Assembly (NCBI GenBank): GCA_022495005.1
Contig: JAGYXB010001852.1
Coordinates: 1-64,000, forward strand
Direction: 5' to 3'
Origin: Rhyacophila brunnea
Lineage: Eukaryota; Arthropoda; Insecta; Trichoptera; Rhyacophilidae
Length of the DNA stretch: 64,000 bases
Shown one piece after another: positions 1-53,830 of the stretch (its first letter is position 1; each line of letters opens with the position of its first letter). The notes below the pieces were generated by a model. It saw nothing but the letters and a program-made list of their open reading frames with translations, had not been told where the DNA came from and made no database searches. The translations under genes were made by a program, and so were the position numbers.

Positions 1-557
1 AATATGCAATTAATCTAATCATCTACGTTTTATGAATTAATACCTGTCAAAAAACGTCAACGCGAATGGAATCGGACACTTAATAGTTTGTCATATTATT
101 ATTAAAATACTGACATTAGTCTATGATACTGACCATAGACTTGGTAATAATAATTATATGAATGTACCTATTTGTATTATAATCCAGATTCTGGATTTAC
201 AGTAATTTTAATTCACAAAGGCGTTATTTATAAAAGTTACATAATATTATGGGATGATAATATTTAAATTTAATAAATACTACAGATCATCTTGTCTATG
301 GCCTTTATCATAATACGATACATAACCTAAAAATGTGACGTTTACGAAGTAAAAATGTAGTCACGATAATTTTAGCAAGCTTTCTTCGGTAATTATGCCG
401 CAGATGCCGTCATGAGCTTCGGGATATACTTTCATAATTGCTCATATTTTTATACGCCATTTTTTATATAAGTAGATAATGAAATGTATAGATTAATTCA
501 CCTATTACAATTTCCATGATTACAATAGCGATGGTGCTACAAAAACAGTATTTTGGC

Positions 558-653
558 AATCTCACTTATGCTATGATTGCAAATCAATGCGATGATCGAA
601 CAACTCAAATCATTGTCATTTGAATGTAGATTCGGTTGCGATGATAGCATAAG
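558..653. repeat. Short inverted-repeat segment, also present at ~1421-1523
   Basis: The segment starts with ACTTATGC(G/T)ATGATTGCAA and ends with a near inverse ending GATCGCATAAGT. In copy 1 the left motif reads CTATGATTGC and the right reads GATAGCATAAGT. The same ~100-bp module occurs a second time about 860 bp downstream in the same orientation, and again in copy B near 14008-14101 and 14872-14970. It looks like a tiny MITE or an internal regulatory repeat of the duplicated unit. No coding content. Confidence 0.5.
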
Positions 654-841
654 TAAAATGACAGCATTAGATCTTTATAAGTAATACAAATGACAAAAAA
701 ATTAGCTTCTTCAGTCACTGTCCACACTTATGGATAACTTTCTTGAGATTTCATCGCTGTGGTCATATGAATGTTAGTCGGCTCTCAGTCGCCTCGTGTG
801 CCGCGCAGCCATAAATCAAACTTTCAGAGAATCGCGATCCA

Positions 842-1156
842 ATGTTGCTTGTGGAGACCGCACACATCTACCTAGCGACAGTCGAAACGTATAAACGGAA
901 TGCCCAATTCATAGGGTTTTGTATGAAATCTGGCGCCTTCGACTCGGAGCCCGAGAAGCATGCTAAAACAGTCTTGTACATAGTCTATTATGCGATTGAT
1001 GATTTTGCACCCTTCATCAATGTTTGCCATATTCTCAACAGTGAGATGTGTTATTTACTCCCGGGAGGCAGCATGAGCATAGGTAGAATGACATTTTGTT
1101 GGCTACACACAACATCTATTAGTCTCAGTGTCCAAGGCGTCAGGGATCTGATATGA
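842..1156 (+). other. Unrecognised 104-codon open frame of the repeat unit (copy 1 of 3)
   Basis: The frame begins MLLVETAHIYLATVETYK and recurs at 11029 (92 codons) and 14288 (104 codons), with mostly single-residue changes and no indels over most of its length. No signal peptide, catalytic motif or known domain is visible. An overlapping minus-strand frame at 1103-1342 (79 codons, start MANVTREKKPARLEEL) is also kept in copy B. Persistence in three copies fits either a real short gene of a mobile repeat or simply recent copying. I infer no function. Confidence 0.3.
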
Positions 1157-2344
1157 CTGACCTAGGATAGAGAGGTGTTGTACTGCAAGTTGGTCGCCAA
1201 CCTTTGATAGAAGACAGTCTGACAAAACATCAGTCACTTCTTTAGATAAAATATTTCTAAGGCTGATGCCATAACAACTCAATGTGTATTCTTGGAGCTC
1301 TTCAAGTCTTGCAGGTTTTTTTTCTCGTGTTACATTAGCCAATGGTTATGCAGAATACAATAACATAATATCTTATTTCTTACTATAGTAGCGATGGTGC
1401 TATAAAAACAGTATTTTGGCAATCTGACTTATGTGATGATTGCAAATCAAGCAGGCGATGATCGAACAAGTCTAATCATTGTCGTTTGAACGTACATTCG
1501 GTTACGATGATCGCATAAGTAAAATGACAGCATTAGATCTTTATAAATTTTAAATACAAATGACAAAAAAAATACAAATTTATTACATTTGCAATAACGA
1601 TTCACGTACATACACATACATCATCGTTCTTCCTTGGAAACCACACAAATCCAAAACAATGTTTTTTCCCGGACACGTTAAAAAAAAGTTCCTGGTATTT
1701 AGAAAGTTTACAAATTGTCCCATTGTGTGAATAAAATTTAGTCAGCATTAATTATTGTGGATTAATTTGCTAGTTTTAGAAGACATCGATGGATTATTCA
1801 AATTTAAATTATTATTTATTTTACATATCGACGTGCCCTAGAAAAACCATTATAAGTCTGAAAATAGCGTATTAAGTTTTATTAGCTTTTTATAATATCA
1901 TATTTTTTGTGCATGTCCTGTAAAAATTTCAGGTCTCTAGCATAAAAATTGACAAAGTTAGGTTTTCGACGATTGTGCAATATATCAACATATTGCGTCG
2001 ACTAAATTTGTGTTCACAGAAATTTCCGAAAAGTATAGTCATATCTAAATAAGCAACGTGTCGTGCGCTCTTTCTTTCGAGTAAGAGGCTCATAATACTT
2101 GCTATTACGCTCTTTCACGGATATCTGAATAGACACCATGTTTTATATTGATGTATTACATAAGACTCGTAATTTGTTTTGGTATATCTTCGAAAAAGAT
2201 TGATATTTTCAGAATTTATACGCATTTATAATTAAAAACTGGTCAGTAGTATTATATCCGAATGTGAAAATATTATATTACTTAATATAAAATAAATTCC
2301 TCGTAGAAAACAAATTAATTTGCATTAAAATTTGTGAAACTATA

Positions 2345-2600
2345 TTATTTCATCACCTGTTTCTATTCACTGTGGTAAAGGCCTCCTCACGCTTTCTCCA
2401 TTCTTTTTGGTTAATTATTTTTCACGGGCACGTGATTTCATCAAACTTAAATATCTTGTCAATATAGCATATTATTATAATTCTAATTATCTTACGTTCC
2501 TCTAAAACTACTGGATTATTGCATTCATTCAGCGGTCGTTTCATCTGCGATATATTATGTCCGGCCCATCTCAATTTAAGGGTTGGACATACCTAAATAC
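2345..2600 (-). pseudogene. Possible decayed LINE 3' end
   Basis: Read on the minus strand, this stretch has a short WAGHNISQMKRPLNE-like piece and then, after breaks, NQKEWRKREEAFT. Non-LTR elements of the RTE/jockey type often end their ORF2 with a WAGHV.R motif followed by a W-rich tail, so this may be a worn fragment. It is frameshifted, short and lies inside the 6.2-kb element. It could be coincidence. Confidence 0.25.
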
Positions 2601-3818
2601 GCCGCAGACTCTTGATTGCTCATTTATTCATTAGTTCCTTTTTCTGTATTTGTGTGTGTTCGTCAACATATACGTCATTATTGTGACAGATTGTAAGAAT
2701 CTTAATTTTTCGGATTTTCTGTTAATTAACAAGACATAAAAATTTGAATGCTTACATTGGAGACTGAAAACACACGTTGACTAAACACCCTGCTATTTAA
2801 ACTCAACAAAAGGTTCAGTTCAAACGTTTTATGCACTCTGCCGATAATTTCGATACGTATTATACCACCATGTATCACATAATATACACTAATAAAATAA
2901 ATTGCTCTTGAAATTATTACAAATTCCTACAAAAATAGTCGGTAATGTTGTTTCTAAATTTGACAATTTTTATTATTTAATAGAAAACAAATACCTAGTA
3001 AAGATACTTAATTTTATTATTTGTGTAATGGAATACATGGTAATTTTGAACTGATATTTATGACACAAACAAGTTAAATAGGTAATCCTTTTTATGACAC
3101 TTCGAAATAGTGAGTTTTTACAAAAGACCGATAAAATTTTGTGGGAATATTACCTTTTTATAATAATATTATGACTTCGGCTAAGATCAAAATAAATTCA
3201 AACATTAAATTATTGAATGTGGGCCTAAGTACACCACATGTACATAATATTTTTGCAAATATGACAATGTAGCCAGTATTGTTATTATATTATCACTTTA
3301 AATATGTCTCGTAGACAAAATCATTAAATTTACTCACTTCTAAGTATCCTGGGAAAATAATTTTATTTGGCGGGATGTCCTAAAAGGATTAGGCGGGCTT
3401 TCACAGAGACGCATTTATTGGCCGCAATAAAACATTAACAAAAATATACAAAATGCAGTCAAAGAAGCATTTATTCGTTTCTACATAAATATTGAAGAAT
3501 TTCTTTTAATTTTGAATTTTTGGGCTTGGTGCCTTATATTATACCTATATATTATTATAATAGAAATTTAGGAAAAGATGAAACAAATAAAACGTCGTGT
3601 AGATGGTAAAATGTACACAGAATAATTTCTTCGTTTAACTTTCCCATTGATTAGCGACTGAGAATTTTTATCATTAATTACAAATAAGTATTAAGTACCT
3701 ACCTATGTAATCTTTGTGTTTATGACTAGTGACCTAATTGGTATTAATTTATATGATTTTATGATCAACGGTTTATAATTATCGTTATTTTCTTTAAAAT
3801 TTAATAAGTACTTATACC
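2601..3818. other. AT-rich stretch inside the 6.2-kb element, no gene seen
   Basis: No long open frame, RNA gene or terminal repeat is visible. The sequence leads up to the first exon of the element's gene, so any promoter of that gene would lie here. I see no convincing TATA box placed against a start site. Confidence 0.5.
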
Positions 3819-3906
3819 ATGTCTGATCGCGCAAAACATATATTGCATTTAGCATCGGGTGGACTTCAAAATAAATTATCAATTAATTTAAAAAAATCTA
3901 GTAGTG
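3819..3906 (+). CDS. Element-borne gene, exon 1 (unknown function)
   Basis: The ATG at 3819 opens MSDRAKHILHLASGGLQNKL and stays open to a donor. Two donors are possible, GTGAGA at 3907 or GTAATT at 3915. Both leave one base of a codon and so both keep the frame into exon 2; the first fits the consensus better. The exon is supported by the phase match with the next two exons, not by homology. I do not recognise the N-terminal sequence. Confidence 0.55.
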
Positions 3907-4373
3907 GTGAGAGTGGTAATTGCATACATTTACATACTTTTTACTTATTGATTATGATTGTTTTATTATTATGAAAGTTATTAGCTATTTAATCCTAGTA
4001 AAATTGGACAGAGTTTACATTTTGTATAATTACCTAAATAAAAAAGAATTAGATATGAATGAAAATTGATATTGTATATGATATGTTTCTTTGAAAGTTC
4101 ATAATGAAACGCTTAGATAATGATATCCACTATTTAAAGAAAATACTATTTGATAACCAATTAGCTTATGTTAATATTAAGTTGATTAATTTATAACGCA
4201 ATGATTGCTGGTTTGCGCTAACCCTCTAAAATAATTTTATTTTGTGCATTTCTTCATTGTAATTCATACTTATCTGTATTTTTATATATTTAACTACTTT
4301 ACTATTTAAATGAGATATTTTATGAATATCTACCAAATCATGGTATCTAATGTGCTTGTGTATTGATTTACAG

Positions 4374-4466
4374 AGTATACTTGTATATTGGATGAAGCAA
4401 GTGGCGTATTCTGCAATGTGAAAAACATGGTGAATGAAGAATCCCTTGACAACGATGAAGTCATAG
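4374..4466 (+). CDS. Element-borne gene, exon 2 (unknown function)
   Basis: The acceptor TTTACAG ends at 4373 and the donor GTAAGC follows the codons DNDEVI. With one base carried from exon 1 the frame reads (E)YTCILDEASGVFCNVKNMVN and onward, acidic towards its end. It ends again with one base of a split codon, matching exon 3. The intron that follows, about 1.84 kb, is mostly occupied by the mariner at 4983-6265. Confidence 0.55.
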
Positions 4467-4867
4467 GTAAGCATAATATGATATAACCACTATAACAACG
4501 TAAGACTATTAAAATATTATTCGATTCTTGGTGAAGAGACTGTGTGTGTATTAACCACTTATTAAAATATAATACAATTTATGTAATATTATTTGACATA
4601 GTTTCACAACAAACAGGACCGTTTTTTATGCTTCAATAGAAGATTTTATTTTTTTAAAGATTTTGTGTTGGTTTATAAGTTTTATAACACTATCCAATCA
4701 AAGTAGAAGAAACTAACCCTCATAGGTAGTAAATTATGGGGAATAAGTATTTGAATTATATTGCGTTTTATATTGATAAAACCTATTTTTTTGTTATATA
4801 TGTAGCAGACGATCTATGTATTTTCTGAATACCACGAAATATTGAGATGTTAGAAAAGATTTAAGTT

Positions 4868-6132
4868 TTAATTTTTCTGAAAAATAAGCAATTCTATAAG
4901 GTTAGGTACTGTAAACTCATCTTTAGGAATGTTTTTTACTGGTATCACTCTGTTATCTACTTTTTTAATCATAGGGTATATACGAGGGTGGGTCAATAAT
5001 TCCTTAGAAAAAAGCATTAAAACAGTTTTTATTTTTGTATTTTTTTTTATTTCAACATAATCTCCTTGGAGCTCAATACACTTGGTTAGACGTTTCTCAA
5101 TTTTTTTTAAACCGTCAGAAAAATAAGTTTTCGGAAGGTCCTCAAAATAAGCATTTGTCCGATCGATGACTTCTTCATTTGAAAAAAACGTTGTCCACTT
5201 AGCCATTTTTTTAAGTTTGGGAAAAGGAAAAAGTCACTGGGGGCTAAATCTGGCGAATACGGTGGGTGGTCGACCAATTCGAACTTCAATTCTTCAATTT
5301 TAGCCATTGATCGTAAACATGTGTGAACACGGGCATTGTCCTGATGAAAGAGGATTTTTTTCCTGTTTAAATGAGGCCGTTTTTCTTCAATTTTGTTTTT
5401 TAGCTGGTCCAATAAAGATGCATAATAATCCCCTGTTATTGTTTTTCCTTTTTCCAAATAGTCAACGAAAATAATTCCACGTGCATCCCAAAATACAGTA
5501 GCCATAACCTTACCAGCTGATTTTACGTTTTCGCCTTCTTTGGACATGGTTCGCCTTTCGCAATCCACTGCTTTGACTGTTCTTTCGTCTCGGGAGTATA
5601 GTGGTGTATCCATGTTTCATCTAGTCACAAAGCGACGAAAAAATTCATCCGGATTGCGTTGCATGAGCGACAACAGGGCTTTAGAGGCCACCACCCTATT
5701 GCGTTTATTGTCGACTGTGAGCAAACGCGGCACCCATCTTGCAGAAATATTTTTCATGCCCAATTTGTCATGTAAAATAGAAATGACGCTACCTTTTGAG
5801 ATCCCTGTAACCTCAATTATCTCACTCAACTTTAATCTTCGGTCACTTAACACCATATCGTGGATTTTATTGATCATTTCTGGTGTAGTCACCTCTACAG
5901 GACGTCCTGAGCGTGGTTCATCCTTTGTTGATGTACGACCACGTTTAAATTCATTTAACCAGTTATAAATAGTTGCAAGTGAAGGAGCAGATATGCCGTG
6001 AACTAAATCCAACTCATTTTTTATTTCCTTTGCTGTTAACCCTTTTATATTAAAATGTTTAATAACAGCTCTAAACTCAATTTTCCATTTTTCCATTTTC
6101 CACAATTTTTTTTTTAAATGTACGAGAAACAC
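4868..6132 (-). pseudogene. Mariner transposase, frameshifted
   Basis: Minus-strand reading. The N-terminal part (5617-6132) holds the paired helix-turn-helix region (SAPSLATIYNWLNEFKRG, then SGRPVEV, then ISKGSVISILHDKLGMK). The C-terminal part (5107-5550) carries VFWDARG, HQDNARVH and SPDLAPSDFFLFP, giving the last two Asp of a DD34D triad, with 34 residues between QD and APSD. Between them the frame is lost after RRFVTR. The motif with the first catalytic Asp (DETWIHHY) is present only in a neighbouring frame, and the original frame returns near 5545. Another shift occurs near 5150, after which the tail continues in a further frame. The enzyme catalyses cut-and-paste transposition, but this copy cannot make an intact protein. 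Confidence 0.93.
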
Positions 6133-6265
6133 ACAACAACCCGACCAATCTGATTGAAACTTCGCAGCATACTGAATCGGTAGTGCCGCTGCATGAAAAC
6201 AAACCGCTTACAGTACTAGTCGCGCCACCTGTCGGCTTTTCTAAGGACTTATTGACCCACCCTCG
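4983..6265 (-). mobile_element. Mariner transposon, full length (1.28 kb)
   Basis: The left end starts CGAGGGTGGGTCAATAATTC and the right end is its near inverse (CGAGGGTGGGTCAATAAGTC). A TA lies on each side (4981-4982 and 6266-6267), the standard mariner target duplication. The length is typical of the family. It sits in the second intron of the gene carried by the 6.2-kb element, opposite to that gene's strand. Confidence 0.95.
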
Positions 6266-6309
6266 TACATTGGAGTATTAAATTATAATTTTATATTTTG
6301 TTTTTACAG

Positions 6310-6839
6310 ATTCTAACGATACGACAGATAAGGATTACAATTCTAGCTATTCAGAATACTGTCCCAGTATAATTTCGTTTACATCAAGTGCTCCAGATAT
6401 TGACGAATATTTTAAATGCGCATCTCCTGAAGTTTTGGATTACTTAATGGATGAACTATCGAAACCGCAAACTGATTCAATACAAACATACCGCAATGAT
6501 TATCAAGATATTGCGATTCCGTCCACTTCAGTGCATTGTAATGACATAATCGCCATTCCAGAAATCATAATGGACAATGATACTTTGACAAATGAAAAAC
6601 CAAATAATCCCAATTCGACTACACATGATGAAAATGATGTACGATCAACGTATTCTCCATCTAAAGGTGCAAAGAGAAGACGACAAGAAATTAATTGGAA
6701 AAAAAATATTTTGAAAACATCAATCAATACTGGCTCCACATATATTTCGAAGGCAGGAAAAATAGTCGATTGGTGTATAAACTATACAATAAAAGTAATA
6801 AAATGTGAGATATTATATATATGTATTAGCATAAAATAA
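6310..6839 (+). CDS. Element-borne gene, exon 3 with Lys/Arg-rich C-terminal motif
   Basis: The acceptor TTTTTACAG ends at 6309. The split Asp codon is completed and the frame runs without a stop to the TAA at 6837-6839. The exon is acidic and Ser/Thr/Asn-rich, then carries KGAKRRRQEINWKKNILKTS followed by NTGSTYISKAGKIVDW. From memory, multi-copy uncharacterised insect proteins carry a similar basic block (KRxR..W.KN..K....SG..Y...GK) and continue with a Cys-rich region and a long C-terminal part. Here the protein stops right after the block, so it looks truncated. The last codons and stop lie in the first unit of a tandem array, which may have replaced the original end. The function is not known; a role in transposition is only an inference. 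Confidence 0.6.
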
Positions 6840-7312
6840 TTAATAACATTATGATTGTTCTTTCCATATTTTTAATTTAAATTGTGTTATCAATAATCCA
6901 ATAAAATTAATTAAATGTGATTTATTTGTATTAACATAAAAAAATTATTAACAATATGATTGTTATCTCCATATTTTTAATATAAATTGTGTTATCAGTA
7001 ATCCAATAAAATGTATAAAATGTGATTTATTTGTATTAATATAAAATAATTATTAACATTACGATTGTTCTTTCCATATTTTTAATGTAAATTGTGTTAT
7101 CAATAATCCAATAAAATGTGATTTATTTGTATTAGCATAAAATAATTATTGACATTATGATTGTTCTTTCCATATTTTTAATATAAATTGTGTTATCAAT
7201 AATCCAATAAAATGAATAAAATGTGATTTATTTGTATTAACACAAAATATTTATTAACATTATGATTGTTCTTTCCATATTTTTAATGTAAATTGTGTTA
7301 TTATGTATACAA
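6790..7312 (+). repeat. Tandem minisatellite, ~105-bp unit, about 5 copies plus a partial
   Basis: The phrase GATTGTTCTTTCCATATTTT recurs at 6853, 7063, 7159 and 7264, with a variant at 6958. The spacing is 105, 105, 96 and 105 bp; the short unit lacks about 9 bp. Each unit has CAATAAAATG, a poly(A)-signal-like AATAAA. The first, partial unit begins inside the last codons of exon 3 of the element's gene, so the array grew out of the gene's 3' end. Confidence 0.9.
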
Positions 7313-8010
7313 ATAAACATTTTTTCTCTCTCGTAGTTACTTGCGTTATATTTTAATTTCTTACATAACTTTTTTTATCCTTCCATAATTACTATTTTCC
7401 TGAATAATTTATATTACTTATTGTACATATTAACAATATTTATATAAATAACTAAAATAATTTACATTTTTTTTTTGATTTTTTAAAAATTATCATACTT
7501 AGATACTTTTCTGTAATAAAAATTTCATACAAAAAAACTGTATGTCAATATGTCTCCTTACTCTTTGTCATTATTTTGTATTCACGCTGTCCTATTTCGA
7601 GCTAAATAATGCGCTATAATGGTTGTTCCGTAAAAGAGCACGATAACTATGGTTGTGTTTAATAAAATCGTATAGAGTAAGAAAAACGCGACGTAAAAAA
7701 CTGTTCTATACCAGAATATAAGTCTGCTGTGCGGAGTCAGTGATCTATTTTGTCCGCGCAAAAGCATGTTGAACCGAGTCAAAACATCAAGCGCGTAATA
7801 TTATTCCAAATAAAAACGATTTTTGGTCATTATCTTAGCTGTTAATCAATTAATCACCATTAAATTTTGATAGAAATATAGACCATAAAATGGTCTATCT
7901 GATTTACTTAAATAAGATTAAAAAAAACTCACTCATTTTATATGATGAATTTAATAGCGTAAATATTTTAGTTTTTTCGCTCTCCTGAACATTTGTGATT
8001 TTAGACTTAC
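7313..8010. other. AT-rich right part of the 6.2-kb element
   Basis: A 66-codon minus-strand open frame (7582-7782) has hydrophobic residues that could form one membrane span, but nothing else supports it as a gene. No domain, RNA or splice structure is apparent. Confidence 0.4.
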
Positions 8011-8636
8011 ACCGGTTTTTCCTGGGGCCGTCGATATTATGGTGAACTTTACAGACATTCACAATATGACAATTAAAAGCAAAGAAATAGTAACAGTAAA
8101 GAGTAAATACAAAAAATATAAAGTAGATACATGGAAGTACTCCGAACGTGGTAGACCATATTATGTGAAGAAATTATAAAACAACGCCCACCTATACTAT
8201 TTATTTAATTTAATTATAACGATCGATCCAATCGTTGTCGGTTTATCGATGCTCAAAGGGGCCTGCCTTGGGTGGCGTTAATTTCGTTACAAGCTGGCTC
8301 GTGAACTACCTCGCGCAGCGATTTTCGCAAAGCAAATGCCTGAGGCAGCTTCGCGAGGCTTTTCGCTCAGTCAGTACGTGGCTATTTGAAAATGAGTTTT
8401 ATAATTATGAAATAAGGATTTTATATCACGGCGTTTGATATTCTGCTTTCACAAAGAGTTTGAAAAACCTACATCATTGTTTATTTACTTGTATATGGTG
8501 CATGCACCTATTATAATTATATGTAAAATATGGTCATACAACGCCAACTGGGCATCTACACACAAGGCATACGTAAGAATATCCCAACTCTCCATGACTC
8601 CGATTCTGTTTGATTTTTACATTTTGTATATATATT

Positions 8637-9025
8637 ATATGAGTCGTATAGTTCCTATATACGATAAATCCACTTTTGGTCAAAATTGAGATAATGATGA
8701 CATTTTTTTCTACCGCCAGCGCTCCACAATTTGGTTCTGTTGATCGGTTCCTAAAGGCTATAAATTCATATGAAAAGAGAGTTTCAAAATCACGATGAAT
8801 TCCTATTGGCGATAAATCCACAGTGCGGTTTGTTCCAAAGGCCGAAAAGTTCATGCGACCTTGTAGACAGCTAATTAGTGAATATTTGTATAAAAAAACA
8901 CACCACCAAAATATAAATTCAATCATATGTTTTCATAATAAAAAATAGTATTAAATGAAAATATTGAGTTTGCCGAAATATCATCAAAGTGGACTTATCG
9001 TATATAGGAACTATACGACTCATAT
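8637..9025. repeat. 38-bp inverted repeat enclosing 313 bp (MITE-like)
   Basis: The left arm, 8637-8674, starts ATATGAGTCGTATAGTTCC. The right arm, 8988-9025, is its inverse with one mismatch. A third partial motif CGATAAATCCAC occurs in between at 8811. The same structure is present in copy B near 15871-16257. It may be a small nonautonomous element fixed before the duplication. Confidence 0.75.
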
Positions 9026-9231
9026 ATATCAATTATTTCATGATATGCGTAAACTTTATATATAAAGAATTTTCCTCGGGTATACAAGAAGGCGATGTGA
9101 AGGGTGATAATGTGAATTATGAGATTATATGTAAGTATTTTAATTTTGTTGAGACGAATAAAATAAATAAAACACAAAATTTATGAAGATTTCACATTCA
9201 CAAAGCTGTGGATAGACAAGGACGATAATGA

Positions 9232-9528
9232 ATGTACTACAATTTCACTGAAACAATAGTCAGATGCATCAACGTCAACATGACACAGAAATGTACAAAT
9301 AGATGTGAAATCAGTACATATTTGTTGCGGTGTTTTTGCGATCGATATTACAAAAACTTAAAGAATTCATTGTTGGCAATAGATGTCGATATAACCTTCA
9401 AATCAAAAGTCAGCATGGAATATGACGTCTGCGAGTTTGATGTAACCATGGGAAATAACGTTTACGAATCTTCGTCGTTTTTTGAACATACCATTTCTAC
9501 GAATCCCGTGTTGCGAACGTATTCCTAA
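9232..9528 (+). other. Unrecognised 98-codon Cys-containing open frame (twin at 16464)
   Basis: It starts MYYNFTETIVRCINVNMTQK and has several Cys residues in its first half. The twin in copy B (16464-16760) encodes the same protein, but the two DNA copies are almost identical, so this says nothing about selection. There is no signal peptide and no known motif that I can name. It may belong to the same mobile or viral-like repeat as the neighbouring short frames, but I have no direct evidence for an origin. Confidence 0.3.
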
Positions 9529-10228
9529 TAGAGTAAATCAGGAGCGTCCATGGTTCAGCGTTCTTTGTACTGTATGGACTTCATCATGACTGTGCACATA
9601 GCAGGCAGTCGGACCGCGCCTGTCAATGAGAACGCTTGCGTTCTAGAGTTCTATTACCGGAATTACAAAGAACTCCGTACCTCTCAACGGTTGCAATGTC
9701 GGGATCAGAAAAATTAATCGATATAGAGAAGATTGATACTTGATTTAAGTGACGCAAATTATATAAATCGCTTTTAATACAGACATATTGTTTTTAAATC
9801 AACACTTGATTGATTTACGTACTTGATAATTTGGCGAGATTTATAGTTTTCATAGTTCAATAATAGAATAAATTTGACATGTGAGGTTATGGGTAAAATT
9901 GAAAGGTTAGAATCGAAATGTCAAATATTATAGATAGAGGTAGGTACACAAACAAATAAGTTTATATGTCACTTCGTTTAAAATCATCGATATTAAGTTT
10001 TTAAATATCCGGTTTGATAAAATGCATTGATTACAGCAGTAATTTTAGTACCTAGATCATATTTAGTTTACAAGTAATTACTCGATTCGGGCGTAACAAT
10101 TACATTACGCAATATTGTATATTGTACAGATCCCTAGAGTGAATAGCCACACTAACAATGATGTTAGACACTTAAATCTTACACTAGTTTTAGTTAGAAA
10201 ATTTTATTGGTTTCTTGAAAAAGTTAAC

Positions 10229-10543: not shown

Positions 10544-10556
10544 CATAGGGCGAAAC

Positions 10557-10721
10557 CACATGGGCGCTGTGTCTGCGAGACCGCTGTATTCTGACTGCGA
10601 GTGGGAGTGAGTACGCAACAGCGGTGCGTTCTGCGAGTGGAAGTGAGAACGCACCGCTGTTGCGTACTCACTCCCACTCGCAGTCGGAATACAGCGGTCT
10701 CGCAGTCGCAGCGCCCGTGTC
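10557..10721. repeat. Near-perfect 165-bp palindrome
   Basis: The arms 10573-10632 and 10646-10705 (60 bp each) are inverse copies with one mismatch, around a 13-nt loop. With a few mismatches the arms extend outward to 10557 and 10721 (ACAYGGGCGCTG). It is GC-rich against an AT-rich background and would form a strong hairpin. It may be a foldback MITE, possibly tied to the adjacent Harbinger fragment. Confidence 0.92.
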
Positions 10722-13265: not shown

Positions 13266-15274
13266 AATATGCAATTAATCTAATAATCAACGTTTTATGA
13301 ATTAATACCTGTCAAAAAACGACAACGCGAATGCGAATAAAATGCGAATATTGCCAGATGGAGTAAAAAAAATACTCTATAAGAAAAACCTCTTTACTAC
13401 GAAAATCTTTTTGCCGTCTACAAAGCTAATTAACTTTCGAATATCTAGTGCCAACGCTCCATTGGCGAGCCAAAAGTCCGTATATTGCATTTTATTTCAA
13501 TCGGACACTTAATAGTTTGTCATATTATTATTAAAATACTGACATTAGTCTATGATACTGACCATAGACTTGGTAATAATAATTATATGAATGTACCTAT
13601 TTCTATTATTATCCAGATTCTGGATTTACAGTAATTTTAATTAATATTTTATTTCACAATGGCGTTATTTATAAAAATTACATAATATTATGGGATGATA
13701 ATATTTAAATTTAATAAATATGTACTACAGATCATCTTGTCTATGGCCTTTATCATAATACGATACATAACCTTAAAATGTGACGTTTACGAAGTAAACG
13801 TGTAGTCACGATAATTTTAGCAAGCTTTCTTCGGTAATTATGCCGCAGATGCCGTCATGAGCTTCGGGATATACTTTAATAATTGCTCATATTTTTATAC
13901 ACCATTTTTTATATAAGTAGATAATGAAATGTATAGCTTAATTCACCTTATTACAATTTCCATGATTACAATAGAGATGGTGCTATAAAAACAGTATTTT
14001 GGCAATCTCACTTATGCGATGATTGCAAGTCAATGCGATGATCGAACAAGTCAAATCATTGTCATTTGAATGTAGACTCGGTTGCGATGATCGCATAAGT
14101 AAAATGACGGCATTAGATCTTTGTAAGTAATACAAATGACAAAAAAATTAGCTTCTTCAGTCACTGTCCACACTTATGGATAACTTTCTTGAGATTTCAT
14201 CGCTGCGGTCATATGAATGTTAGTCGGCTCTCAGTCGCCTCGTGTGCCGCACAGCCATAAATCAAACTTTCAGAGAATCGCGATCCAATGTTGCTTGTGG
14301 AGACCGCACACATCTACCTAGCGACAGTTGAAACGTATAAACCGAATGCCCAATTCATAGGGTTTTGTATGAAATCTGGCGTCTTCGACTCGGAGCCCGA
14401 GAAGCATGCTATAACAGTCTTGTACATAGTCTATTATGCGATTGATGATTTTGCACCCTTCATCAATGTTTGCCATATTCTCAACAGTGAGATGTGTTAT
14501 TTACTCCCGGGAGGCAGCATGAGCATAGGTAGAATGACATTTTGTTGGCTACACATAACATCTATTAGTGTCAGTGTCCAAGGCGTCAGGGATCTGATAT
14601 GACTGACCAAGGATAGAGAGGTGTACTGCAAGTTGGTCGCCAACCTTTGATAGAAGACAGTCTGACAAAACATCAGTCTCTTCTTTAGATAAAATATTTC
14701 TAAGGCTGATGCCATAATAACTCAATGTGTATTCTTGGAGCTCTTCAAGTCTTGCAGGCTTTTTTTCTCGTGTTACATTAGCCAATGGTTATGCAGAATA
14801 CAATAACATAATATCTTATTTCTTACTATAGTAGCGATGGTGCTATAAAAACAGTATTTTGGCAATCTGACTTATGTGATGATTGCAAATCAAGCAGGCG
14901 ATGATCGAACAAGTCTAATCATTGTCGTTTGAACGTACATTCGGTTACGATGATCGCATAAGTAAAATGACAGCATTAGATCTTTATAAATTTTAAATAC
15001 AAATGACAAAAAAAATACAAATTTATTACATTTGCAATAACGATTCACGTACATACACATACATCATCGTTCTTCCTTGGAAACCACACAAATCCAAAAC
15101 AATGTTTTTTCCTGGACACGTTAAAAAAAAGTTCCTGGTATTTAGAAAGTTTACAAATTGTCCCATTGTGTGAATAAAATTTAGTCAGCATTAATTATTG
15201 TGGATTAATTTGCTAGTTTTAGAAGACATCGATTGATTATTCAAATTTAAATTATTATTTATTTTACATATTAT
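13266..15274. repeat. Large duplicated unit, copy B, left part with empty target site
   Basis: This is the counterpart of 1-1828. It keeps about 165 bp (13337-13500) that is absent from copy A. It carries the 104-codon + frame (14288-14602) and its minus-strand partners (14497-14785). At 15268-15278 the sequence ACATATTATGG runs straight into the right part of the unit, so the 6.2-kb element of copy A is missing here. Confidence 0.87.
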
Positions 15275-17181
15275 GGTGAACTTTACAGACATTCACAATA
15301 TGACAATTAAAAGCAAAGAAATAGTAACAGTAAAGAGTAAATACAAAAAATATAAAGTAGATATATGGAAGTACTCCGAACGTGGTAGACCATATTATGT
15401 GAAGAAATTATAAAACAACGCCCACCTATACTATTTATTTAATTTAATTATAACGATCGATCCAATCGTTGTCGGTTTATCGATGCTCAAAGGGGCCTGC
15501 CTTGGGTGGCGTTAATTTCGTTACAAGCTGGCTCGTGAACTACCTCGCGCAGCGATTTTCGCAAAGCAAATGCCTGAGGCAGCTTCGCGAGGCTTTTCGC
15601 TCAGTCAGTACGTGGCTATTTGAAAATGAGTTTTATAATTATGAAATAAGGATTTTATATCACGGCGTTTGATATTCTGCTTTCACAAAGAGTTTGAAAA
15701 ACCTACATCATTGTTTATTTACTTGTATATGGTGCATGCACCTATTATAATTATATGTAAAATATGGTCATACAACGCCAACTGGGCATCTACACACAAG
15801 GCATACGTAAGAATATCCCAACTCTCCATGACTCCGATTCTGTTTGATTTTTACATTTTGTATATATATTATATGAGTCGTATAGTTCCTATATACGATA
15901 AATCCACTTTTGGTCAAAATTGAGATAATGATGACATTTTTTTCTACCGCCAGCGCTCCACAATTTGGTTCAGTTGATCGGTTCCTAAAGGCTATAAATT
16001 CATATGAAAAGAGAGTTTCAAAATCACGATGAATTCCTATTGGCGATAAATCCACAGTGCGGTTTGTTCCAAAGGCCGAAAAGTTCATGCGACCTTGTAG
16101 ACAGCTAATTAGTGAATATTTGTATAAAAAAACACACCACCAAAATATAAATTCAATCATGTTTTCATAATAAAAAATAGTATTAAATGAAAATATTGAG
16201 TTTGCCGAAATATCATCAAAGTGGACTTATCGTATATAGGAACTATACGACTCATATATATCAATTATTTCATGATATGCGTAAACTTTATATATAAAGA
16301 ATTTTCCTCGGGTATACAAGAAGGCGATGTGAAGGGTGATAATGTGAATTATGATATTATATGTAAGTATTTTAATTTTGTTGAGACGAATAAAATAAAT
16401 AAAACACAAAATTTATGAAGATTTCACATTCACAAAGCTGTGGATAGACAAGGACGATAATGAATGTACTACAATTTCACTGAAACAATAGTCAGATGCA
16501 TCAACGTCAACATGACACAGAAATGTACAAATAGATGTGAAATCAGTACATATTTGTTGCGGTGTTTTTGCGATCGATATTACAAAAACTTAAAGAATTC
16601 ATTGTTGGCAATAGATGTCGATATAACCTTCAAATCAAAAGTCAGCATGGAATATGACGTCTGCGAGTTTGATGTAACCATGGGAAATAACGTTTACGAA
16701 TCTTCGTCGTTTTTTGAACATACCATTTCTACGAATCCCGTGTTGCGAACGTATTCCTAATAGAGTAAATCAGGAGCGTCCATGGTTCAGCGTTCTTTGT
16801 ACTGTATGGACTTCATCATGACTGTGCACATAGCAGGCAGTCGGACCGCGCCTGTCAATGAGAACGCTTGCGTTCTAGAGTTCTATTACCGGAATTACAA
16901 AGAACTCCGTACCTCTCAACGGTTGCAATGTCGGGATCAGAAAAATTAATCGATAGAGAGAAGATTGATACTTGATTTAAGTGACGCAAATTATATAAAT
17001 CGTTTTTAATACAGACATATTGTTTTTAAATCAACACTTGATTGATTTACGTGCATAAATACTTGATAATTTGGCGAGATTTATAGTTTTCATAGTTCAA
17101 TAATAGAATAAATTTGACATGTGAGGTTATGGGTAAAATTGAAAGGTTAGAATCGAAATGTCAAATATTATAGATAGAGGT
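15275..17181. repeat. Large duplicated unit, copy B, right part
   Basis: This is the counterpart of 8034-9941, with the same short open frames (15469-15672, 15669-15923, 15768-16160 on -, 16464-16760) and the 38-bp inverted repeat. After TAGATAGAGGT the sequence turns into an inverse of its own last 14 bases (CTATAATATTTGAC), then diverges from copy A. Confidence 0.87.
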
Positions 17182-36399: not shown

Positions 36400-37994
36400 G
36401 GGTCTAGGACGATTTGGCACCGCGAACTGGCCTCCGCCGATTGGCCTCCGGTAATTGGCCGCCGGTACAATCGGACGCCGGCCCAATTGGACGCCGACCC
36501 AATTCGACGCCATTAACTGGCCTCCGGGAGATTGGACGCCGCACAGTTGAATTAAATGCGCAAAGGAATAGACGTACGTTACGATTTGTTGGAGTAAATA
36601 AGCAAGTCAGTTTATTATGCTTCTATCTTCTCAGTAGGTGTACCTTATACATTTCGCGCTTGACACATTTTTAATATAGATTGAGAAAAATTATTATGCC
36701 TGATGATGTTTATTAAAAGAAAATAATTCTTCCCTCGCTAAAACTTAAAGATGTGCATAATCAATTAATTTATTGTCTATACATGGGTACTTATTTATAT
36801 TTACAACAAATATTAAAAATAATGTTAGATGTTAGAATGAAAATTACATAATATTTCAGCGTTTTATCGACTTAATATTATAATAAAGCTTAAATATGTA
36901 TATTATTATGCATAAATGCGTATTTTAAGATAGTATGAAATTACAAACAAAATATTAAGTAAGTTATCTGCTAACTATAAATGTTTTAGTAGTTTGATTG
37001 ATAAACTACTTAGGTACTGGGTGCCGGACGAAATCTCGAAGGCAGGCCGAAATCCCGAAAGCCTAAATCCCGAAAAATAAAAAAAATACAAACATCAATA
37101 ATTGCGCAATTTTTGCAAGAGACACAAAAACCCACTTTTTGTGGAAATATAAAAAAAATGTAAAATACAAACATCAATAATTGCGCAATCGTGAATTGCG
37201 CAATTTTTGTAAGATGCACAAAATCCATTCGTTCTACAAAATGGTCTCTCCTGAAAAAAAATGCGCAATCAGAAAAACCCATTTTCCGAAAAAATGGGAT
37301 TTGTCTCTCTTACAAAAATTGCGCTCACGATTGCGCAATTATTGATGTTTGTATTTTACATTTTTTATATTTCCACAAAAAATGGGTTTTTGTCTCCCTT
37401 GCAAAATTTCCGCAATTATTGATGTTTGTATTTTTTCATTTTTCGGGATTTCGGCCATTCGGGATTTCAGCATTCGGGATTTCGGCCTTCGGGATTTCGT
37501 CCGGCACCCAGTACCTAAGTAGTCAATAAAACGCTGAAATATAATGTAATTTTCATTCTTACATCTAACATTATTTTTAATTTTTGTTGTAAATATAAAT
37601 AAGTACCCATGTATAGACAATAAATTAATTGATTATGCACATCTTTAAGTTTTAGCGAGGGAAGAATTATTTTCTTTTAATAAACATCATCAGGCATAAT
37701 AATTTTTCTCAATCTATATAAAAAATGTGTCAAGCGCGAAATGTATAAGGTACACCTACTGAGAAGATAGAAGCATATTAAACTGACTTGCTTATTTACT
37801 CCAACAAATCGTAACGTACGTCTATTCCTTTGCGCATTTAATTCAACTGTGCGGCGTCCAATCTCCCGGAGGCCAGTTGGGTCGGTGTCGAATTGGGTCG
37901 GCGTCCAATTGGGCCGGCGTCCGATTGTACCGGCGGCCAATTACCGGAGGCCAATCGGCGGAGGCCAGTTCGCGGTGCCAAATCGTCCCATTCC
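36400..37994. mobile_element. 1.6-kb foldback element with long inverted arms
   Basis: The left arm (from ~36410: GGACGATTTGGCACCGCG, then repeated GGCCTCCG/GGACGCCG...ATTGG words, then ATTAAATGCGCAAAGGAATA) is mirrored from 37990 backwards for about 450 bp. CGTCACTAAA flanks both sides (36390-36399 and 37995-38004), a 10-bp target duplication as seen in Mutator-like foldback elements. The centre is filled by a second, separate inverted-repeat element. Open frames here are products of the repeats. Confidence 0.88.
37012..37515. mobile_element. Nested inverted-repeat element inside the foldback element
   Basis: The ends AGGTACTGGGTGCCGGACGA and its inverse enclose arms with repeated CGAAATCCCGAA (left) and TTCGGGATTTCGGCC (right), followed inward by mirrored AACATCAATAATTGCGCAA. 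About 150 bp of extra sequence lies beside its left end and has no partner in the right arm of the outer element. Confidence 0.75.
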
Positions 37995-51600: not shown

Positions 51601-52288
51601 TAACCTTCTACCTATATCACATATAGTTAATTATTATTATCGTTCTTATAGCTTCTAAAAAAATGCAAAATATATTAGTACTATGTAATTCAATATAACT
51701 CAACCATAGATAACTTAAAACCAAGCAGAAAATGTATGTTCAGCAACAAATAATACAGGTATCTAATAAAACCATAAAGCGCGATACGGAACCGTTGACG
51801 TTATGCAGCCGTTCTATTAAGAAAAACACATTACGTCAAGTTCTTTCTCTCTTCCTTTTAAAATTAGACGCCTACCTTAAGGACTTATGCGTTTAAAAAT
51901 TAATAAATCTAAAAAATCATAACACCACTGCACATGGATGTACTGAAATATGACTATATTCTAAAACATTAGATCGAGATGTTTAAAAGAATACTATTTT
52001 ATGTAATAAAAATACTTTATGCAGTCATCAAATGTTTAAAATAAATATAAAGGATAATAAGGCTTCAAAATTACGTTTCAGGAATGTCCAGGCGTATGCT
52101 CTGAAAATACCATAAAGTCTCCATTTTGACCTACATTGGGCACGTACGTCAAAATTAAAGTTAAAGTCTTGATCAATGAATTTACTTACATTTTTTTACA
52201 TTGTATTTTGACAAAATTCAATCTCCCGCGCAATTTGTTTTATTTTAATATGTGTTTGTTGTAAATTACGATAAATTAAATATTTCAG
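51601..52288. other. Third intron, right part
   Basis: AT-rich, with no gene or terminal repeat recognised between the truncated LINE and the exon 4 acceptor. Confidence 0.45.
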
Positions 52289-53830
52289 GTGGAACTCCAT
52301 ATACGATACATCGAGCTACAGCGAATCATTCAAGACAAGATGACTGAACTGGAAAGATTATGCCTTAGAGAGAGAGAGATGCTAGATGGAAAGTGGAAGA
52401 CACACAGTTTGCCTTCGCAACGGAAGAAAGCAAACGGTACAGAACCCTGTGAAACCACTCCATCTGAAGAAGATATTGTGACTTATTCTTACTGCAGGCC
52501 GACAGTGTCTACCGAAGACGTTGCGACCAAACACAAGCAATCTCAGATATTATTAACTTATCAGTATTTAGATCCTAACTACAGGACATATATCTTACAG
52601 CCTACTACCTCAAGAAGCGGTGATTATGTGGTAAGCCTCGGCCCTCCGAGAAGTAAAAGTGACCATCACCATTTTATTGTTAAGACACCCTGCACGGGAC
52701 AAAGCATTAATATTACTTCTAGACATATTCCAAGCGGGAAAGTAGTACATCAAACAAACGGCATGCAAACGTCTACGAGTAACAAGCCCAATAAAAAAGG
52801 CTCGCATCATCATTCACATAGATGTAATCCGTGTTATCCTCCGCAGAATAATCAAGATAGTGCCAGTCTAGAAGCATATGATCTTGCCAGCCCGTGCTGC
52901 GATCCGCATTGCGTACCAAGTGCTAAAAGACGATCCAGACATCACAAACACCACGATAAAGAACACAGTCACCGAAAGAAAGAGAAACCTAGGTTGCCAG
53001 AAAGAGAAAGTAATAAACGCGAATCCTCATCTCAGACTAGATCTAAATCTCAATGTCAACCGAGTATTCAACACTCAACGGGCAAATATCGGTATTTGAA
53101 TTTTGGAGCCGGTCTGGTAAGTCAGTGTAGTTTGCAATCTTGTACGTCTAGTGAGATGAGTGTAACAGTCCCCACGTGTGAGAGTTCAGTCACTAGCTAT
53201 ACAACATCTTTGAGTAGCGATACACTTTACTGGGATAATCCAAACGATACGCGGCATTCTAGGACGCCGCCTAAAGTTCAAAACTTAAATAATCACCATC
53301 ATCAAGCATACCCACCTCAATGTAAGCCCAAATCTTGGGACAATTTAACGACTAAAGCATTCGGCGGATACGGGTTTGGTTATGGATATTCGGATGCTTC
53401 TAACAAACAGAGTGGTAACCCTAAAGGACATAGTAGAGCACACAGCACGAAAAGCGCCCAAGAACACCGGGCGTACAGACACTCAGCCAATGAAAAGCAG
53501 ATCCAGCACGGTATGTATTTGCAGCACCACGGACACCATAGGTATACCCCTCCAACCAAATCAACAGAAAGTTTGTTGGTAGTATCAAAATATCATGATC
53601 CGACTATGTCTGACTCGAGTATCTCTTGCGAATGCTTAGATGTTGTATCACCAGATGGTACCTTAAAGGCTACAGCCAGATTCTTCCAGCAAAATCAGGG
53701 AGGCGTTATAATTAGTCCAACCGATCAGAGAAACACCGGTTACTATTCACAACACATACCCAGACCACAACTGCAAAATTTGAGAAATCATACACTTCCC
53801 TCTACGACGTCAGAAATCACGCGTTTATAA
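52289..53830 (+). CDS. Tamalin/GRASP/CYTIP-like PDZ scaffold protein, last coding exon
   Basis: This is a scaffold of the tamalin (GRASP)/CYTIP family. In vertebrates these bind cytohesins and receptor tails through a PDZ domain and a leucine-rich helix and act in receptor trafficking. The acceptor ATTTCAG ends at 52288, and this 513-codon exon follows exon 3 in phase 0. It opens with VELHIRYIELQRIIQDKMTE, then LERLCLREREMLDGKW, a predicted amphipathic helix or coiled coil (residues about 157-195) like the cytohesin-binding region. The remaining ~470 residues are low-complexity, rich in Ser, His, Thr, Gln and basic residues (HHKHHDKEHSHRKKEK), longer than in vertebrate homologues (recalled as about 360-400 residues in total). 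The protein ends SEITRL, a class I PDZ-ligand form (T-x-L). Whole protein: about 669 residues. A possible poly(A) signal AATAAA lies at 54021. Confidence 0.88.
   Translation: MELHIRYIELQRIIQDKMTELERLCLREREMLDGKWKTHSLPSQRKKANGTEPCETTPSEEDIVTYSYCRPTVSTEDVATKHKQSQILLTYQYLDPNYRTYILQPTTSRSGDYVVSLGPPRSKSDHHHFIVKTPCTGQSINITSRHIPSGKVVHQTNGMQTSTSNKPNKKGSHHHSHRCNPCYPPQNNQDSASLEAYDLASPCCDPHCVPSAKRRSRHHKHHDKEHSHRKKEKPRLPERESNKRESSSQTRSKSQCQPSIQHSTGKYRYLNFGAGLVSQCSLQSCTSSEMSVTVPTCESSVTSYTTSLSSDTLYWDNPNDTRHSRTPPKVQNLNNHHHQAYPPQCKPKSWDNLTTKAFGGYGFGYGYSDASNKQSGNPKGHSRAHSTKSAQEHRAYRHSANEKQIQHGMYLQHHGHHRYTPPTKSTESLLVVSKYHDPTMSDSSISCECLDVVSPDGTLKATARFFQQNQGGVIISPTDQRNTGYYSQHIPRPQLQNLRNHTLPSTTSEITRL

What the first reader, a model, noticed from the sequence alone, without database searches (positions are those of the whole stretch)
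1829..8033. Recently inserted 6.2-kb gene-carrying transposon, with its empty site 7 kb away
Two nearly identical copies of a larger repeat differ by exactly this segment. The segment has ~34-bp imperfect inverted ends (CGACG..CCC..GAAAAACC) and an ATAT or TA target duplication, and copy B shows the intact target. Insertion after the duplication is the simplest reading. The cargo is unusual: a spliced three-exon gene of unknown function, a dead mariner and a minisatellite, but no recognisable transposase. This implies mobilisation in trans by an unknown relative. A 4-bp palindromic target hints at Sola, but that is inference.
Basis: partly seen in the sequence, partly recalled or inferred. Interest (0 to 1): 0.87.

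Follow-up and report, generated by a model that had tools for sequence, protein, structure and literature searches.

The report
Gutted transposon with decaying transposase stub
This 6.2-kb insert, in what is likely an insect genome, is one copy of a DNA transposon family whose supposed mystery gene is the leftover front end of the family's own predicted transposase, so it was likely moved by an enzyme made elsewhere in the genome.

Summary
1829-8033 is a DNA transposon with ~37-bp imperfect inverted ends and a 4-bp duplication (ATAT); the empty target lies at 15268-15271. Its left end matches 177 places in the 1.09-Gb genome. 18 of 19 other fetched copies with both ends carry a perfect 4-bp duplication, including CTAT, ATGT, ATTT, ACAT and GTAT, which settles 4 bp over TA.

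The interpretation needs correcting. The "three-exon gene of unknown function" is the N-terminal part of the family's own predicted transposase. Longer relatives (C610, C2064) have the same exons and run on into a DUF7869 protein with a predicted RNase-H (DDE-type) core; here that part is deleted (junction 6764/6765). The stub ORF is intact in 5 of 19 copies, shows no purifying selection, and carries the same stop in 7 copies at different sites, so the family spread without it. The 5 same-family transposase copies found are all broken. A sister family (~52% identical) has an open 741-aa frame, CGAC ends and ATAT duplications.

The mariner is a later nested insertion, absent at the same site on a near-identical contig. 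Empty is the ancestral state (three uninterrupted sites).

New member of a known kind; Sola membership untested.

The parts
1829..8033 (+). Non-autonomous DNA transposon (4.9 kb in the other copies, 6.2 kb here because of a nested mariner)
   Evidence: Exact ends shared with fetched copies; 177 left ends genome-wide
1825..1828 (.). Left target-site duplication ATAT
   Evidence: single ATAT in the empty copy at 15268-15271
8034..8037 (.). Right target-site duplication ATAT
1829..1865 (+). Left terminal inverted repeat (37 bp, imperfect)
   Evidence: 31 matches in 38 columns with the right end
7998..8033 (-). Right terminal inverted repeat (36 bp, imperfect)
3819..3915 (+). Exon 1 of the transposase stub (ATG..; donor GT at 3916)
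   Evidence: GT/AG kept in 19 of 19 aligned copies; ATG in 11 of 19
4374..4466 (+). Exon 2 of the transposase stub
   Evidence: GT/AG kept in 19 of 19; relatives
6310..6839 (+). Truncated exon 3 of the transposase stub, with stop; from 6765 on it reads into former 3' sequence
6764..6765 (.). Internal-deletion junction: relatives C610 and C2064 continue here into the DUF7869 part
   Evidence: 1-bp overlap between the two C610 edges
4983..6265 (-). Nested mariner in intron 2 (TA at 4981-4982 and 6266-6267); its frame carries one in-frame stop
   Evidence: absent at this point in 20 of 20 fetched loci, including the same genomic site on C280
6818..7301 (+). Minisatellite, period 105; part of the family's 3' region, also in C610 and C2064 with fewer units
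70..9941 (+). Larger repeat, copy A (70-1828 and 8034-9941), filled
13499..17181 (+). Larger repeat, copy B, empty site at 15268-15271

Best explanation
The segment is a cut-down copy of a DNA transposon that carries only the front end of its own predicted transposase gene and was likely moved by a transposase supplied from elsewhere in the genome. Shown: exact ends and 4-bp duplications across the family; empty sites; full-length-type relatives (C610, C2064) with the same ends and the same exons 1-3 that run on into a DUF7869 protein; an internal deletion in the window copy and its sisters that removes this part and leaves a 216-residue stub plus a meaningless tail; no purifying selection on the stub; spread of copies that share one stop codon; a later mariner insertion. 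Inferred: the DUF7869 protein is the transposase (from its place in the elements, the predicted RNase-H core and its conserved acids); it cuts at the CGAC ends and inserts at ATAT-like targets; the cut-down copies were moved in trans by a family copy that is now lost, unsampled or decayed, or by an open relative.
Against: No intact same-family transposase was found: 5 of 5 copies at 72% identity or more (C610, C1717, C222, C2064, C797) are broken by stops or a frame change, so the actual helper is not identified. The genome search scores only the best candidates (101 of 4663), so an intact copy could be missed. Foldseek itself gave only one PDB match at E<=0.001 (TnsB, TM 0.13-0.15), and the model is of a homologue, not of this genome's protein. 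Transposase activity is untested. L013 lacks a clean duplication. A second cut-down subfamily with the same ends (L037-L040) has no detectable transposase remnant, so the ends alone need not come from this one lineage.
Confidence: 0.92

Rival explanations
1. The three-exon gene is genuine captured cargo with a function of its own, carried by an enzyme-less transposon.
For: Open frame with clean GT-AG splice sites in the window copy; splice sites kept in 19 of 19 aligned copies. No Pfam hit and no database protein at E<=0.001 with the whole stub as query.
Against: The same exons form the 5' end of the DUF7869 gene in C610 and C2064; similarity to N-termini of DUF7869 proteins; intact in only 5 of 19 copies, missense-to-silent ratio near 1, shared stop in 7 copies.
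Confidence: 0.03
2. The stub protein is kept as a repressor or partner of the full transposase, as truncated P-element products are (recalled comparison).
For: The stub keeps the basic KRRR..WKKN..Y..GK block that is conserved ahead of the catalytic core; some copies, including the window's, keep it open.
Against: No sign of purifying selection (P 0.61 for 46 against 9, P 1.0 for singletons) and copies with a dead stub spread. With so few silent changes a short-lived role cannot be excluded.
Confidence: 0.04
3. Copy B is not a pre-insertion site but a site from which the element was precisely excised, or the A/B difference is an assembly artefact.
For: Copies A and B are close to identical; right flanks of A and B differ at 5 of 1906 sites while A and its C280 counterpart differ at 11 of 1895, so conversion between copies has occurred.
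Against: Uninterrupted site also on C280 (99%) and on the more distant C1743 (91%); the same A-filled/B-empty order on two contigs; the family inserts at many unrelated sites with fresh duplications.
Confidence: 0.04
4. Tc1/mariner-type element with a TA duplication and TCGACG ends.
For: At an ATAT target, TA plus a longer inverted repeat cannot be told from 4 bp in this one copy.
Against: CTAT, ATGT, ATTT, ACAT and GTAT duplications in other copies; the enzyme part of relatives hits DUF7869, not a mariner family.
Confidence: 0.01

Closest known systems
Sola superfamily (Sola1/2/3) of cut-and-paste DNA transposons
   Same: 4-bp target duplication and DDD/E-type enzyme, as passages of PMC10741241 describe Sola; element size in its 2-9 kb range for the sister family.
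DUF7869 (PF25273) proteins of insects
   Same: The enzyme part of C610 is a member by curated cut-off; about 40-52% identical proteins of 650-715 aa in insects.
   Different: The Pfam entry is of unknown function; here it sits in elements with defined ends and 4-bp duplications.
Internal-deletion derivatives such as maize Ds or Drosophila KP (recalled, no call)
   Same: Ends kept, catalytic part of the gene deleted, moved in trans.
   Different: Different superfamily; no repressor role shown.

Membership tests
Non-autonomous deletion derivative of a DNA transposon | Same ends as the full element, with the enzyme part missing by internal deletion | tested here: met
   C610 and C2064 against the 19-copy family; junction at 6764/6765
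Non-autonomous deletion derivative of a DNA transposon | Spread although its own gene product is dead | tested here: met
   Same TAA at codon 148 in 7 of 19 copies with different flanks
DUF7869 (PF25273) family, for the enzyme part of the longer relatives | Score above the curated cut-off | tested here: met
   C610 ORF 49.3 bits, cut-off 26, E 5.9e-13; the window's own stub has no Pfam hit
DDE/D cut-and-paste transposase | RNase-H fold with conserved acids on strand 1, after strand 4 and in the helix after strand 5 | tested here: met
   Predicted model and alignment only, for a homologue; Foldseek alone was weak
Sola | 4-bp target duplication | tested here: met
   18 of 19; C610 and C951 too
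Sola | Homology of the enzyme to Sola1, Sola2 or Sola3 transposases | not testable with these tools
   No Repbase or Sola sequence held; the founding paper is not in the library
Tc1/mariner | TA target duplication | tested here: not met
   Five non-ATAT 4-bp duplications
piggyBac | TTAA target duplication | tested here: not met
   the piggyBac-like ORF in L011 is a nested insertion in that copy (named from its sequence by recall)

The most novel reading that the evidence does not exclude
DUF7869 is the transposase of a cut-and-paste superfamily that has no published name of its own: ends beginning CGAC, 4-bp ATAT-like targets, a shared GCTCTCCTGAA motif about 45-55 bp inside the right end of two families only ~52% identical in protein, and a spliced gene; it has been filling insect genomes while its protein is annotated as unknown.
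Probability: 0.2. Interest if true: 0.55.

Novelty: new member of a known kind. Interest (0 to 1): 0.3.

Why it matters
It turns an apparent mystery gene into a decayed transposase stub, gives the stub's parent (a Pfam domain of unknown function) a place inside elements with exact ends and 4-bp duplications, and supplies a genome with near-identical cut-down copies beside an open sister enzyme. That makes the function of DUF7869 directly testable by an ordinary excision assay. As biology of a transposon it is ordinary: deletion derivatives moved in trans are well known.

Tried and rejected
Cargo gene of unknown function: rejected. TA duplication: rejected. L011 as an autonomous copy because of its extra 3.2 kb: rejected, the extra part is a nested element with a 583-aa piggyBac-like ORF inside exon 3. 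L024 likewise has a large foreign insertion and only its left end was used. Searching the whole stub against 5.8 billion proteins found nothing at E<=0.001, and Pfam nothing; only the genome's own longer relatives revealed its identity. The transposase had no PDB sequence match and no NCBIfam match. Foldseek's other PDB rows (Argonaute, NurA, others) are RNase-H-like or chance and were not used; families absent from the list are not excluded by it. Literature: 'DUF7869' is in 0 papers of the held library; Sola searches gave listings, of which passages only were seen in PMC4455052, PMC5199201, PMC10741241, PMC10294476 and PMC11071193; Bao et al. 2009 is not held. No claim that the family is unpublished in Repbase is made. 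Age was not computed because a host substitution rate would be recalled. The host was placed only by one exon.

Full report
What is there. The window is C958:1-64000 of an unnamed 1.087-Gb assembly. Two copies of a larger repeat lie in it, and copy A contains 1829-8033 where copy B has a single ATAT. The inverted ends agree in 31 of 38 columns. A search with the first 472 bases gave 40 scored matches out of 407 candidates, the best 100% identical. I fetched 20 of these places. Nineteen show both ends, at the predicted bases; the twentieth (L024) is interrupted by foreign DNA. A 30-mer from the left end is found 177 times in the genome, with 0 in the control. These 177 include a second subfamily: four of its members (L037-L040) have ends ~80% identical to the window family and lengths of about 3.5-5.2 kb; in three of them both ends were read and flanked by ATAT.

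Target site. Of 19 copies with both ends, 18 have identical 4-mers on both sides; the sites include CTAT, ATGT, ATTT, ACAT and GTAT, so the duplication is 4 bp. The exception is L013. Two of the 18 are weak evidence: L012 shares the window's site and L025 lies in an AT repeat.

The gene. Exons 3819-3915, 4374-4466 and 6310-6839 join in frame at GT-AG sites. Neither Pfam nor the large protein database knew the 239-residue product. A search of the genome itself found, besides near-identical copies, relatives (C610, C2064, C1717) whose similarity stops at residue 216-217 and whose frames go on. In C610 and C2064 the following frames encode the rest of a protein with a DUF7869 domain. C610 is 11.8 kb long with nested insertions; it has the same kind of ends and ATAT on both sides. 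The cut-down copies lack what lies between its AAAATA and GTCGAT edges, with one base of overlap. So the last 20-odd residues of the window's gene are former untranslated sequence, and the minisatellite belongs to the family's 3' region, since it is in C610 and C2064 too. As an independent check, the stub resembles the N-termini of DUF7869 proteins: best E 9e-9 at 26% identity over residues 20-216 against C257, and weaker matches to several database proteins, in a small comparison of 40 proteins with composition correction off.

Is the stub used? In 19 aligned copies the stub reads from ATG to the end of the transposase part in 5; 8 have no ATG; 7 share a TAA at codon 148 although their flanks differ. 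Unique variants are 44 missense, 2 stop and 9 silent on 568.7 and 142.3 sites; the ratio is 1.28, or 1.00 for singletons, and neither departs from neutrality (P 0.61 and 1.0). Numbers are small, but the spread of copies with the shared stop shows that the product is not needed in cis.

Who moved it. Five same-family enzyme copies at 72% identity or more were found and all five are broken (C610 by a frame change, C1717, C222, C2064 and C797 by stops). The search scores only the best 101 of 4663 candidates. So the helper was probably a family copy now decayed, lost or missed; an open relative is the alternative.

History of the site. Contig C280 is collinear with window 829 to about 15.9 kb, with further matches up to 17 kb, at 97-99%: it carries filled A without the mariner and empty B. 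It is either the other haplotype or a duplicate. A third, inverted C280 copy is joined from window position 1161 to 2961, so it is a later copy of filled A with a deletion. The 401 bases around the empty site are uninterrupted in three places: C958, C280 and, at 91%, C1743. Empty is therefore the likely ancestral state. Flank comparisons are mosaic: on the left A is nearer to its C280 counterpart (4 differences in 1000, against 12 in 997 to B), on the right nearer to B (5 in 1906, against 11 in 1895), which suggests conversion between copies. The mariner at 4983-6265 came last; it is absent at that point in 20 of 20 fetched loci, including the same site on C280.

Verdict. It is a new member of a known kind; whether that kind is Sola could not be tested.

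Noticed in passing
window 52280-53830 (+): A 516-aa open exon matches insect short spindle 6 (ssp6) PDZ proteins; best named relative Carabus blaptoides at 51%, three unnamed at 72-74%. The host is likely an insect, perhaps a beetle.
   Followed up: partly
C257/C951 (L032, L041) and protein P0001: The JGI protein P0001 (contig of 2807 bp) is nearly identical over the aligned N-terminus to the C257 transposase of this genome: same species in a metagenome, or horizontal transfer.
   Followed up: no
L037-L040: A second cut-down subfamily with the same ends and no detectable transposase remnant.
   Followed up: partly
L011 4160-7403: A nested element with a 583-aa open frame that looks like a piggyBac transposase sits in exon 3 of this copy.
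   Followed up: no
C280:393884-400600: An inverted third copy of the filled repeat, 99.4-99.5% like the window on the fetched left part, with window 1162-2960 deleted.
   Followed up: partly
window 36407-36872 and 37521-37988: A 468-bp inverted repeat pair, 97.7% identical.
   Followed up: no
window 10556-10715: A long imperfect palindrome of GC-rich CTGCGAG-type units near the edge of the larger repeat (read).
   Followed up: no
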